From: Verrucomicrobium sp. BvORR034
GTDB taxonomy: Bacteria; Verrucomicrobiota; Verrucomicrobiia; Verrucomicrobiales; Verrucomicrobiaceae
Assembly (NCBI RefSeq): GCF_000739635.1
Contig: NZ_BATQ01000137.1
Coordinates: forward strand, 1 to 54,088
DNA length: 54,088 nt
Direction of reading: 5' to 3'
Within the stretch, counting starts at the first letter, position 1, and each line of letters opens with the position of its first letter. Below are positions 38,486 to 42,344 of the stretch, one piece after another. Position numbers and translations under genes: made by a program. The notes under the pieces were generated by a model. It was not told the origin of the DNA. It ran no database searches and saw only the letters and a list, made by a program, of their open reading frames with translations.

Positions 38486-40069
38486 CTACTCCGCGTAGTT
38501 TGCCTTCTTTGAGAGGAAGTACTCGAGGCTGTCCACAAGGGCTTCCCAGCTAGCGTCGATAATGTTGGAGTTCACCCCGACTGTGCCCCAATGGTTGACG
38601 CCATCCGTGCTCTCGATGAGCACGCGAGTCTTGGCGGCGGTGCCGGTGCGGCTGTCGATGATACGCACTTTGTAGTCGCAGAGCTGGACGTTCGCGATTT
38701 CCGGATGGGCTCTGGAGAGCGCCACACGAAGCGCACGGTCAAGGGCGTTCACGGGGCCGTCGCCCTCCTCCACGGTGTAAACCCGCTCGCCATTCACCTC
38801 CACTTTGACGGTGGCTTCGCAGGTATCAAAGCCGCGCTCCCCATGGGTGCGGTGGCTCACGTGGTACTCCAGCAGCTTGAAGCTGGGGGTGAACTGACCC
38901 AGGTCCTTGCGCAGGACGAGTTCGAAGGAGGCATCGGCCGCCTCGTATTCGTAGCCATCGTTCTCCTGGGTCTTCACATGATCAAGGATGCGCTTCACCT
39001 CAGCCGAGCCGCGCTGGAGTGGGAATCCCAGCTCAGTGGCCTTGTGCAGGATGTTATCCTGGCCGGACATGTCGCTCACCAGCACCACCTGGCGGTTACC
39101 TACGGTGGCTGGCTCGATGTGTTCATAGCTGCGGGCCAGTTTTTGCACGGCATTCACATGCGTACCGCCCTTGTGAGAGAAAGCCGTGCTACCAACGAAC
39201 GGCGCACGGTTGAAGTGCGGGAGATTGGCGACGTCATCCACGAACTTCGAAAGCCCCGTCAGACGAGTCAGGTCAGCCACCACCGGCAGCCCCATTTTGA
39301 GCTGCAAATTCGGGATGACGGTGGTGAGGTTGCAGTTGCCGGTGCGCTCCCCGTAGCCGTTCATGGTACCCTGTACCTGCACGGCCCCCGCGCGGATGGC
39401 GGCGAGGGCATTGGCAACACCGAGCCCGCCGTCGTCATGACTATGGATGCCGAGCCGGGCTTCTGGGAAGCGCGCCTGCACCTTGGAGACGATCTCCGCA
39501 ATCTCATGCGGCAGCGTCCCGCCGTTGGTCTCGCACAGTACCAGTACATCGGCCCCACCTTCCAAGGCTGCTTCCAGCGTGGAAAGAGCATACTCGGGCT
39601 CGTCTTTGAACCCATCAAAGAAGTGCTCCGCGTCGTAGAAGACTTCGCGACCGGCCTCCTTGCAGTGACGCACGGTGTCACGAATCATGGCGCGGTTCAC
39701 TTCAGGCGTGGTGCGGAGCACCTCGGTCACATGAAGGAGCCAGCTCTTGCCATAGAAGGTAACGACTGGGGTCTCGGCCTCCAGGAGGGTGCGCACCTGG
39801 GGATCCTTATCCACCGCCAGGTCGGCACGGCGCGTGCTGCCAAACGCGGCGATCTTGGCGTGCTTGAAGGTCTGTTTCTTGGCCAGCTCGAAGAACTCCA
39901 CATCCTTGGGGTTGGAGCCAGGCCACCCGCCCTCAATGTAGTGCATGCCAAAGCTGTCCAGCTCGTGAGCGATGCGCAGTTTGTCGAGGGAGCTGAAGTT
40001 GACGCCTTCACCCTGCGTCCCATCACGGAGCGTGGTGTCATAGAGGGTAACTTTCGATACGGCGGTCAT
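38486..40069 (-). CDS. cimA: (R)-citramalate synthase
   Basis: A 527-residue enzyme of the alpha-isopropylmalate/homocitrate synthase group. It condenses acetyl-CoA and pyruvate to citramalate, the first step of the threonine-independent route to isoleucine. The TIM barrel starts with L-Y-D-T-T-L-R-D-G-T-Q-G-E-G-V (active-site block) and contains H-S-H-D-D-G-G-L-G-V-A-N (metal-binding HxH, about 205-216) and G-T-M-N-G-Y-G-E-R-T-G-N. The C-terminal LeuA regulatory domain (about 390-510), which binds isoleucine in the family, is present. Length and motifs fit CimA better than LeuA. A leader peptide with four Ile and a terminator-like hairpin lie upstream. Confidence 0.93.
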   Translation of the reverse strand: MTAVSKVTLYDTTLRDGTQGEGVNFSSLDKLRIAHELDSFGMHYIEGGWPGSNPKDVEFFELAKKQTFKHAKIAAFGSTRRADLAVDKDPQVRTLLEAETPVVTFYGKSWLLHVTEVLRTTPEVNRAMIRDTVRHCKEAGREVFYDAEHFFDGFKDEPEYALSTLEAALEGGADVLVLCETNGGTLPHEIAEIVSKVQARFPEARLGIHSHDDGGLGVANALAAIRAGAVQVQGTMNGYGERTGNCNLTTVIPNLQLKMGLPVVADLTRLTGLSKFVDDVANLPHFNRAPFVGSTAFSHKGGTHVNAVQKLARSYEHIEPATVGNRQVVLVSDMSGQDNILHKATELGFPLQRGSAEVKRILDHVKTQENDGYEYEAADASFELVLRKDLGQFTPSFKLLEYHVSHRTHGERGFDTCEATVKVEVNGERVYTVEEGDGPVNALDRALRVALSRAHPEIANVQLCDYKVRIIDSRTGTAAKTRVLIESTDGVNHWGTVGVNSNIIDASWEALVDSLEYFLSKKANYAE

Positions 40070-40225
40070 AGGAAGCAGAGAGGAGGTGGCGGAAAAGCAG
40101 GGTTATGAGAAAAGCAAAGAAGAGAGGCTTGCGCAAGGCGGACCGGGGACGGCGAAGTCAATCTTTCGCCAGTTCGACGCCGGGTCCGGGCGCTCAGTCA
40201 GAAGAGAGGATGCGGGCTGTCTGCA

Positions 40226-40246
40226 CAAAAAGACGCCTTTCAGGCG
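40226..40246 (-). terminator. Terminator-like hairpin in cimA leader (attenuator)
   Basis: On the minus strand GCGCCT-gaa-AGGCGT then CTTTTTG: a 5-6 bp GC stem with 3-base loop followed by five T. It lies about 55-75 bases after the predicted start of transcription and about 160 bases before the cimA start. The upstream GCCGCG that overlaps the 5' arm can instead pair with CGCGGC in the leader-peptide codons, a possible antiterminator. Confidence 0.5.
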
Positions 40247-40257
40247 CGGCAGAAGCC

Positions 40258-40299
40258 CTAGATAATTCGAATGAGCCAGATGGAGGCCGCGGACGACAT
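40258..40299 (-). CDS. Isoleucine-rich leader peptide of cimA
   Basis: A 13-residue open frame: M-S-S-A-A-S-I-W-L-I-R-I-I and stop TAG. Four of the last seven residues are Ile (ATC, ATT, ATT, ATC), and one is Leu. The ATG lies 9 bases after the predicted -10 box, so the message would be almost leaderless. A terminator-like hairpin follows 12 bases after the stop. This is the layout of amino-acid attenuators, and isoleucine is the end product of the cimA route. Translation is not proven. Confidence 0.55.
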   Translation of the reverse strand: MSSAASIWLIRII

Positions 40300-40308
40300 G
40301 AGGCGCGG

Positions 40309-40336
40309 AGGATAGCAGGTGTTTTAAAGTGAGCAA
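40309..40336 (-). promoter_or_regulatory. Candidate promoter of the cimA leader
   Basis: Minus-strand TTGCTC (40331-40336), 16-base spacer, TATCCT (40309-40314). The -10 and its 9-base distance to the next ATG are the same as in the fic promoter (53438-53465). The rest of the gap 40070-40438 has no other feature that I can support. Confidence 0.45.
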
Positions 40337-40438
40337 GTTCTTGGTTCCTGGTTGTTGGATTGACACCACCCCACTCCGGGGAAGGAGATGGAGTTGCTGC
40401 TTGCCTCGACGGAGCCTCAAAGCCATGGTCGCGGCCGG

Positions 40439-42344
40439 ATGTTTCGAGAGCCCTCCTTTTTGCCGCTGCGTGAGTCCCGTGTGCTCATCGTGGTGAGCGC
40501 GCTATTGTTTGCCGGATTTTTTGACGGCCTACCTGACCATCGACCGACCGGTAAAGCAGGAGCGACGGATCGAACGTCTGAAATCTGAAGGCAAGGTGGT
40601 GGCACCAGAAGCCTACGTGCCGGTGTGGCTCTACAAGGGCTTGAAGCTCAACCTGGGCCTGTCCGCCCTGCTGCTCCTTGCCAGCCCCTGGCTCGGGCGG
40701 CGGCGACCGGATGGAATGACCTTTGTGGATTCCCCTCCCCGCCCCCGCTGGACCAAGTGGCAGACGCTGGGACTGGTGGGAGTGGTGGGCCTGGGGGCGT
40801 GGATGAACAGCCCCCGGCTGACTCTCTCCATGTGGGGAGACGAGGACTTCAACGCCAGCCGGTTCATTCTAGACAAGGTGGAGCGCCAGCCAGACGGAAC
40901 GCTCACCATCGAGCCCCGCTCGTGGGCGACCACCCTGTGGAACATGCGCAAGCCCACGAACCACCTGGGGTACAGCGCCTTTGCGCGGCTCTCCCATGAG
41001 ACCTTTTTTCGCCCTGGCACGGGCCCCGATGCGCCATGGTTCAATGAAGCGCTTCTGCGCGCGCCGGTGTTTGTGGGCGGACTGGCCACCCTGGCGCTCA
41101 TGATCTGGTCCCTGCGGGTTTGGGGCCTTAGCGGATGGTGGACCGTACTGCTGATGGCAGCCCATCCTTGGTTCATCCGGTTCGCAGTGGATGGTCGCGG
41201 CTACGGATTTGTGATGCTGGGGGCCACAGCGCTGGTGGGAGTGGTGGGTCGCGCCCTGCAGACCGGGCTCTGGCGATGGTGGGTCCTGATGGGGATCCTG
41301 GAGTTTTTTATCCTCTGGAGCAATTTCCAAAGCGTGTACCTGCTGGCGGGGCTCAACCTGCTGGTGGCCGTGGCTCTCTGGTCCCCAAATCTCACCTGGT
41401 CCGCACGATTTCTGCTCGCTTACCGCTGGATCGTTGGCGGGCTGGTCACCTGCTTCCTGGTGCTGGGCTACCTCACCCCCTGCTGGCCCCAGTTGCTGGA
41501 GTTCATGAAAAAGGGGGAGATCCACGGTACGATGGACCTGCGCTGGTGGCAGGACTCCTTCTCCGGCTGGGTCTTTGGCCAGCCGTGGAACTCATGGAGC
41601 CGGGAAACCAATCCACTGCACCATCACCTCTCGGCCGCTTTCGGCGATCACCCAGTCCTCTTCGCTGCGGGCATGGGCACGCTGCTCCTGACTTTGCTGA
41701 TGGGTCTCTGGGCCCTGGTGACAGACCGGACACGCCGATTGCTGCTGATCTTCGTCCTGGCGCCGCCAGTATTGATGCTTGCTCATATGGCAGCCGGACA
41801 GAACAAGCCCTATCCATGGTACTTACTGCCTTTCCTGCCAGGCCTCTTCATGCTGGTCTCCGCCGCGGCCTCAGGAATGGCGCGCTGGCGGGTCAAGCAT
41901 CGGCACGGCCTGCTCCTTGCCGTGACCACCCTTTTTGTCCTGATCACTGCGGTGCCCCGGGACCGGATGCGACACCATCCCATCGAGCCCTCCCGTGAGT
42001 CGGTGGCCAGCTACCGCAAGATCATGAGTCCCCGCCATCCGGACTTTGACAAGGAGGTGATGGGTGGGGCACTCTCCATGTTCACAGAGGCCTATGATCC
42101 GGCAATGTACCGGGCGGACAATCTGGCGGAGTTCCGCGTCCTGCTTGAAGAAGCGGACCGCAGCGGACGCCAGCTCTACTTCAATCTAGGGGATGTGGGC
42201 TTTCAGAAATCCAATCCTACTTTGGCGGAAGTAATCGCCGTTTTGGAAGATCCCGCACAATTTGAGCATGTGGGGCACTTTTCTGGACTCATGCCTTTCA
42301 CCTCCCGCGATGTCTTTCGGTATCGAGGGCAAAATTCTCGATAA
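40439..42344 (+). pseudogene. Polytopic glycosyltransferase (PMT/ArnT-like), N-terminus frameshifted
   Basis: The main frame, usable from a TTG at 40509, gives a protein with about ten membrane helices, an early G-D-E-D-F-N-A-S-R-F motif (about residues 110-119; D-E after the first periplasmic helix is the catalytic-type pattern of GT-C enzymes) and a soluble C-terminal domain. The first helix is incomplete in that frame. The missing part (R-V-L-I-V-V-S-A-L-L-F-A-G-F) is in a second frame starting at 40439, and the two join in the T6 run 40517-40522, which would need removal of one base. Either a real mutation or an assembly error. Donor probably a polyprenyl-phosphate sugar. First gene of a three-gene operon. 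Confidence 0.65.

What the first reader, a model, noticed from the sequence alone, without database searches (positions are those of the whole stretch)
40226..40336. Isoleucine attenuator upstream of cimA
A candidate promoter (TTGCTC-16-TATCCT) is followed by a 13-codon frame M-S-S-A-A-S-I-W-L-I-R-I-I (four Ile), then by a GC hairpin with T5. CGCGGC in the leader codons can pair with GCCGCG that overlaps the terminator arm. The product of the pathway started by CimA is isoleucine. Attenuators are best known for ilv/leu operons in Proteobacteria; one on cimA outside that group would be new to me. The leader seems to be translated without a ribosome site. Caution: the antiterminator arm lies before the Ile codons, so stalling would have to be at the last two Ile for the classic model.
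Basis: partly seen in the sequence, partly recalled or inferred. Interest (0 to 1): 0.7.

Follow-up and report, generated by a model that had tools for sequence, protein, structure and literature searches.

The report
Isoleucine leader-peptide switch before cimA
Just before the gene for the first isoleucine-pathway enzyme lies a tiny isoleucine-rich reading frame followed by a hairpin, kept across most of a bacterial family, which most likely lets the cell sense isoleucine shortage while it copies the gene.

Summary
On the minus strand, 230 nt before cimA, a promoter-like pair (TTGCTC-16-TATCCT) ends 9 nt before the ATG of MSSAASIWLIRII*; a hairpin starts at its stop codon. Of 58 readable cimA upstream regions in the same family, 55 carry this leader, with Ile codons around an invariant CGA-ATT-A and the stop in the hairpin loop in 49 of 55. 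The stem is kept by compensatory changes. Promoter spacing (50 of 55; shuffles at most 2) suggests a leaderless mRNA. An RNA model hit 55 of 276 genomes of the order, all in this family, but missed three window-genus genomes. Another family has a different Ile-rich cimA leader (12 of 18); leuA has a Leu-rich one (18 of 21). Best reading: Ile-responsive attenuation in which a ribosome stalled on Ile codons covers the hairpin's 5' arm. How transcription stops is open: the U-tract is weak or misplaced in the window genus. Nothing was tested at the bench.

The parts
40331..40336 (-). -35-like hexamer TTGCTC
   Evidence: Read; TTGNNN at 16-18 nt from a TA-box lying 7-11 nt before the leader ATG in 50 of 55 family leaders, 200 shuffles mean 0.37, max 2
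40309..40314 (-). -10-like hexamer TATCCT, ending 9 nt before the leader ATG
40258..40299 (-). leader peptide frame MSSAASIWLIRII plus TAG stop
   Evidence: Leader with Ile codons in 55 of 58 readable family regions; 0 of 1000 shuffles of the spacer as Ile-rich
40263..40269 (-). invariant core CGA-ATT-A, directly after an Ile codon
   Evidence: 55 of 55 leaders; it was also the search key, but 55 of 58 readable upstream regions contain it within a leader
40249..40258 (-). outer stem, 5' arm GGGCTTCTGC; its first G is the last base of TAG
   Evidence: MFE folds; stem kept with compensatory changes in the family
40227..40231 (-). T5 run, lying between the inner hairpin and the outer 3' arm
   Evidence: Read; found
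40214..40224 (-). outer stem, 3' arm GCAGACAGCCC (one bulged C)
38486..40069 (-). cimA, citramalate synthase, the presumed regulated gene
   Evidence: TIGR00977 724.8 bits

Best explanation
It is an isoleucine-responsive leader-peptide attenuator of cimA, translated from a leaderless transcript that starts at or within a few bases of the leader AUG. When charged tRNA-Ile is short, the ribosome stalls on the Ile codons around CGA-AUU. Its footprint then covers the 5' arm of the hairpin that begins 11 nt from the first base of the CGA, so the hairpin cannot form and RNA polymerase goes on into cimA. When isoleucine is plentiful, the ribosome runs to the nearby stop codon (in the loop in most relatives, at the stem's base in the window and four relatives) and leaves; the hairpin folds and transcription is cut short. 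Shown by computation: conserved promoter spacing, leader frame, Ile codons, hairpin with compensatory changes, position before cimA. Inferred: transcription start, translation, stalling, masking of the arm, and premature termination.
For: Leader in 55 of 58 readable family upstream regions; without the frameshifted G015, 2-5 Ile, 39 of 54 with 4, 21% of leader residues. Stop 27 nt from the first base of CGA in 49 of 55 and 9 nt in 5. Outer stem variants GGACTC/GAGTCC, GGGTTC/GAACCC, GGATTC/GAATCC and GGGCTTC/GAAGCCC. Pair counts on 56 distinct rows: 97.5% paired, 31 cells changed on both sides, 0 of 500 shuffles as high, covariation 0.258 against at most 0.095 for slid controls. Promoter-to-ATG spacing 50 of 55, shuffles max 2. 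RNA model: 55 of 276 order genomes, all in the window's family; one genome has a weak second hit. A different Ile-rich leader before cimA in 12 of 18 genomes of another family of the order. Leu-rich leader before leuA in 18 of 21 family regions, 16 of those 18 with at most 2 of 100 shuffles as Leu-rich.
Against: No expression data. In the window genus the long stem is followed by GCATCCTCTCTT, not a U-tract, and the T5 follows only a 5-bp inner hairpin that an Ile-stalled ribosome would not cover; a simple intrinsic terminator does not fit well there. T after the stem is only modestly raised in 51 leaders (0.59, 0.61, 0.43, 0.43 at the first four positions, background 0.29; G000, G065, G067 and G014 were left out because the script placed their arms elsewhere). 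The fold of the window sequence alone is not unusual (z -1.49). G063 and G064 (genus g11) keep cimA but lack the leader, and G005 lacks it too. G006-G008 have only 2 Ile. The alignment behind one search was fitted to the model's structure; on the unfitted alignment covariation is weaker (5 of 500 shuffles as high) and RNAalifold did not choose the outer stem. The other two frames of the leader stretch are also open in 38 and 28 of 55, so frame conservation alone is weak evidence. The model scores the window's own copy poorly (19 bits, E 0.016).
Confidence: 0.76

Rival explanations
1. The leader senses isoleucine as above, but the off state is made by Rho or by RNA decay, not by an intrinsic terminator: a ribosome parked on the leader and the hairpin control access to the stretch before cimA.
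For: No convincing U-tract after the long stem in the window genus and in many relatives. In the window the 188 nt between leader stop and cimA are 38% C and 22% G. Rho was suggested, weakly, for terminator-less cys leader peptides in Mycobacterium (PMC1262725, passages seen).
Against: One branch of the family has U-runs right after the stem (e.g. GTCCGTTTTTGTTTTG in G023), and some leaders of the second kind have CGGTCTTTTTT after the stem.
Confidence: 0.3
2. Classic three-segment attenuator: the leader contains an antiterminator arm that competes with the terminator.
For: Alternative pairings can be drawn in single species; in the second kind of leader, the arm with GTGATTGCG can pair either with Ile codons upstream or with sequence downstream (by eye).
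Against: The proposed CGCGGC/GCCGCG pair is lost in both sister species; folding of the family and of its subgroups showed no competing arm shared across the family. That was not an exhaustive search.
Confidence: 0.12
3. The conserved stretch is a small protein gene or a trans-acting small RNA whose position before cimA is incidental.
For: Peptide and RNA are conserved; in Sinorhizobium the trp leader peptide and its RNA act in trans (PMC7298713, passages seen).
Against: One model hit per genome apart from one weak extra; the part before the Ile codons varies; the encoded amino acid matches the pathway, and the leuA leader carries Leu instead.
Confidence: 0.08
4. Chance Ile-rich ORF in a spacer; nothing regulatory.
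For: The single-sequence fold is unremarkable; the generic promoter scan found nothing.
Against: 0 of 1000 shuffles and model hits in nine genera.
Confidence: 0.02

Closest known systems
ilvBNC attenuator of Corynebacterium glutamicum / ilvB-II motif (PMC10272879 and PMC11857589, passages seen; Morbach et al. 2000 seen only as a reference title)
   Same: Short BCAA-codon leader frame about 150 nt before a BCAA biosynthesis gene; the cited title reports leader peptide formation without a ribosome binding site; one copy per genome.
   Different: Different gene (ilvB, not cimA) and phylum; mixed Ile/Leu/Val codons; an antiterminator hairpin was modelled and mutated there, none conserved was found here.
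Actinobacterial ilvB leaders with codons overlapping the terminator (PMC1262725, passages seen)
   Same: Regulatory codons run into the hairpin.
   Different: There a poly-U run follows the hairpin; here the U-tract is weak, or sits inside the loop in the window genus. According to that paper, codon substitution in S. coelicolor ilvB had no effect, a warning for this reading.
Leaderless trpL attenuator of Sinorhizobium meliloti (PMC7298713, passages seen)
   Same: Transcript reported to start at the leader ATG; here this is only inferred.
   Different: trp genes and a different phylum.
E. coli ilv/leu operon attenuators (recalled, from no call)
   Same: Leader peptide rich in the end-product amino acid, hairpin before a biosynthesis gene.
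   Different: As recalled, those leaders have a Shine-Dalgarno and an antiterminator, and the gene is not cimA.

Membership tests
Leader-peptide transcription attenuator (trp/ilv kind) | short leader frame rich in codons for the pathway's end product | tested here: met
   55 of 58 readable family upstream regions; mean 3.8 Ile in 54 leaders; 0 of 1000 shuffles in the window
Leader-peptide transcription attenuator (trp/ilv kind) | hairpin downstream of the regulatory codons, kept by selection | tested here: met
   31 cells changed on both sides, 0 of 500 shuffles, on an alignment fitted to the structure; unfitted: 5 such cells, 0 of 500
Leader-peptide transcription attenuator (trp/ilv kind) | intrinsic terminator: hairpin followed by a U-tract | tested here: inconclusive
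   U-rich after the stem in a branch of the family; in the window T5 follows only the 5-bp inner hairpin
Leader-peptide transcription attenuator (trp/ilv kind) | mutually exclusive antiterminator | tested here: inconclusive
Leader-peptide transcription attenuator (trp/ilv kind) | expression responds to charged tRNA-Ile through leader translation | not testable with these tools
   needs reporter or RNA-seq
Leaderless leader mRNA | transcription start at the leader AUG | tested here: inconclusive
   indirect: TA-box 7-11 nt before ATG with TTG upstream in 50 of 55, shuffles max 2; start site not mapped
T-box riboswitch | match to the Rfam model | tested here: not met
   no Rfam match at E<=1 in window 39900-40700; nine relative loci gave only a tRNA
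Any described family of Rfam release 15 | covariance-model match | tested here: not met

The most novel reading that the evidence does not exclude
A family-wide, leaderless branched-chain amino acid attenuation regulon (Ile for cimA, Leu for leuA) built around regulatory codon - CGA - regulatory codon, with the hairpin at or right behind these codons. The rare CGA codon is a built-in slow step that sets the ribosome on the hairpin's 5' arm, so that the stalled ribosome itself is the antiterminator.
Probability: 0.3. Interest if true: 0.7.

Novelty: new variant of a known kind. Interest (0 to 1): 0.52.

Why it matters
cimA is the entry to the threonine-independent route to isoleucine (recalled). 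My full-text searches for cimA with leader peptides and attenuation and for Verrucomicrobia with them listed no paper that looked to be on the subject. A conserved, apparently leaderless element with the stop codon in the hairpin and no antiterminator yet found would show how little ribosome-mediated attenuation needs, and it gives a clear test of whether a rare codon paces such a switch.

Tried and rejected
A longer overlapping minus-strand ORF (40103-40426): its frame is closed inside the leader stretch in 27 of 55 relatives. Known Rfam families: none. RNAalifold on alignment A2 chose a short UCCG/CGGA hairpin across the Ile codons plus the inner stem instead of the outer stem; three rows of A2 are, by my reading, out of register by one base, so I re-aligned with a covariance model, which biases pair counts towards the structure. 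Copies at other genes: the pattern gave one hit in each of 33 genomes (it does not match the window genus) and the model one per genome, plus one weak second hit in G042, E 0.0098. ilvB and ilvC of the own genome: no BCAA-rich leader, apart from a 9-residue TTG frame with 3 of 9 before ilvB that I take for chance. Short Ile ORFs before cimA in two Chloroflexi MAGs (L032, L045) are about what chance gives among 79 regions. Two leuA leaders, G012 and G063, are not more Leu-rich than shuffles (30 and 15 of 100). A partner for the invariant CGAATTA: I looked by eye at the folds and saw none that is conserved; no systematic search was run. Rows dropped or moved by hand: G063 and G064 (their CGAATTA match was judged not to be a leader; the model does not find one there either); leader ATGs of G028 and G054 set to the in-frame ATG two codons upstream for the promoter count.

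Full report
What is there. The minus strand of the window carries cimA at 40069-38486 (TIGR00977, 724.8 bits against a cut-off of 450). Upstream lie a promoter-like pair TTGCTC-16-TATCCT (40336-40309), an ATG 9 nt further on (40299), 13 codons MSSAASIWLIRII, TAG, and a hairpin. The hairpin has a long outer stem (40258-40249 with 40224-40214) around a short inner one (40247-40233), with T5 between them. None of 1000 dinucleotide shuffles of the 439-nt spacer gave an equally Ile-rich ATG frame, but the fold by itself is ordinary (z -1.49, 16 of 200 shuffles as stable) and a generic promoter scan found none.

Conservation in the family. A DNA search with the 381-nt upstream region matched 7 of 38 genomes including the own one: two sister species over nearly the whole length (92% and 90%), and four genomes of other genera only in the leader and hairpin stretch. 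All 68 genomes searched in the family have some match to CimA, in a few only a distant one. I extracted upstream regions from 61; three had 120 nt or less (G044, G050, G055). Of the other 58, 55 have the leader; G063, G064 and G005 do not. Further copies: G032, G001 and a second contig of G055, and G045 by the model alone. In G001 the contig ends soon after the leader, so its place before cimA is not seen.

The leader. The peptides have 13-20 residues, except in G015, where an inserted base shifts the frame. Without G015 they hold 2-5 Ile. Ile stands directly before CGA in 48 of 55 and directly after it in 55 of 55. CGA-ATT-A is invariant (55 of 55); it was my search key, but only 3 of the 58 readable regions lack it within a leader. 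CGA is rare in these genes (16 of 608 Arg codons in 24 cimA genes) and ATT is a minor Ile codon (63 of 634). The stop lies 27 nt from the first base of CGA, in the hairpin loop, in 49 of 55, and at 9 nt in 5, the window among them. The other two frames are closed within the leader stretch in only 17 and 27 of 55, so the open frame alone is weak evidence.

The hairpin. The outer stem starts 11 nt from the first base of CGA and is kept as GGACTC/GAGTCC, GGGTTC/GAACCC, GGATTC/GAATCC or GGGCTTC/GAAGCCC. A covariance model from 44 rows, run on 61 family loci, gave 58 matches, 14 of them not used to build it: 10 at E 7e-6 or better, G012 at 4.8e-4, and G065, G067 and the window itself at 0.011-0.016. 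On the 56 distinct rows 97.5% of cells pair and 31 cells change on both sides; none of 500 shuffles reaches either. That alignment leans to the structure by construction. On the unfitted alignment A2 the same stems gave 96.3% paired and 5 cells with double changes, 0 of 500 shuffles as high for both, but 36 of 500 for further pair types and 5 of 500 for the covariation score; RNAalifold preferred another small hairpin. In the order the model hit 55 of 276 genomes, all in this family, one hit each except a second at E 0.0098 in G042. It missed G000, G065, G067 and G012, which have the leader, with that search's stricter filters.

Leaderless start. In 50 of 55 leaders a TTGNNN box and a TA-box at 16-18 nt end 7-11 nt before the ATG; 200 sets of shuffles gave a mean of 0.37 and at most 2. 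A sigma-70 start would then fall at or within a few bases of the AUG, leaving no room for a Shine-Dalgarno. This is inference from spacing; no start site was mapped.

Outside the family. In the order, 38 further regions were read, one of them from the window's family. An Ile-rich leader before cimA, with at most 1 of 100 shuffles as rich, was found in 12 of 18 genomes of family f3 and 1 of 1 of f5, but 0 of 2 of f4. In f2 one of 16 (G176, a 9-residue frame with 2 Ile) passed, which I take for chance. Of 80 named cimA loci, 79 could be tested. Nine passed at 0-1 of 100: six labelled Verrucomicrobia, Verrucomicrobiales or Akkermansiaceae, L026 labelled Staskawiczbacteria, and two Chloroflexi MAGs that I take for chance. 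Some may be the same genomes as unnamed ones. Of 19 such leaders, 8 carry GTGATTGCG after the Ile codons, where it can pair with them; it is followed by CGGTC and a T-run that is clear in some and weak in L004, L006 and L029. In several the same arm can also pair with sequence further downstream (by eye). The promoter spacing recurs in 10 of 19, shuffles at most 2.

A parallel at leuA. In the own genome leuA is preceded by MSSTVHSLNLLPGLLRLGLAAH*; 18 of 21 family regions examined have a Leu-rich leader by my reading (not G017, G006, G018), and 16 of those 18 have CGA flanked by Leu codons. Against shuffles, 16 of 18 have at most 2 of 100 as Leu-rich; G012 and G063 do not pass. In folds of these leaders the CGA and Leu codons often lie inside a stem, so the constancy of CGA there may be structural. 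ilvB and ilvC of the own genome show no convincing leader.

Mechanism. A ribosome waiting for tRNA-Ile at the codons around CGA covers roughly 13 nt to either side (a 26-nt occlusion is the estimate used in PMC13236596, passages seen), which reaches into or over the outer 5' arm. This would let RNA polymerase pass. After fast translation and release the hairpin can form. The weak point is the stop signal. T is enriched just after the stem in 51 leaders (0.59, 0.61, 0.43, 0.43 at four positions against 0.29) and strong in one branch, but in the window genus the T-run lies inside the outer loop behind a 5-bp hairpin. Rho or RNA decay remain open there.

Known relatives. Leader peptides without a ribosome site (C. 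glutamicum ilvBNC), leaderless trpL and actinobacterial ilvB codons overlapping the terminator each share one feature. Searches for cimA or Verrucomicrobia with leader peptides and attenuation listed none or one paper that did not look to be on the subject and was not opened; the library is open-access only. The phylum label rests on named record L003, whose contig length equals that of G063's contig in this family; the order name Verrucomicrobiales is my inference.

Noticed in passing
L002 (own genome, leuA upstream), leader ATG 285 nt before the match; loci L210-L229: Leu-rich leader peptide before leuA in 18 of 21 family regions, 16 of 18 beyond shuffles, 16 of 18 with CTN-CGA-CTN; likely a Leu attenuator.
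   Followed up: partly
L004, L005, L006, L028, L029, L160, L165, L177: A second kind of Ile-rich cimA leader: GTGATTGCG after the Ile codons can pair with them, then CGGTC and a T-run of varying strength (8 of 19 leaders).
   Followed up: partly
window 40263-40269: CGA-ATT-A is invariant although CGA and ATT are minor codons; no conserved pairing partner seen by eye.
   Followed up: partly
L089, L149 (G063, G064) and L148 (G005): cimA kept but no leader found; a natural control for regulation.
   Followed up: no
L135 (G015): One inserted base after the Ile codons puts the leader out of frame with the loop stop, giving a 71-codon frame.
   Followed up: no
loci L210-L226, downstream of the leuA leader: A second hairpin, often with a CACG-type loop, recurs after many of the leuA leaders (by eye).
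   Followed up: no
window 40509-42344 (+): Divergent 611-codon frame, by its residues probably a membrane protein, without an NCBIfam match at E<=0.001.
   Followed up: no
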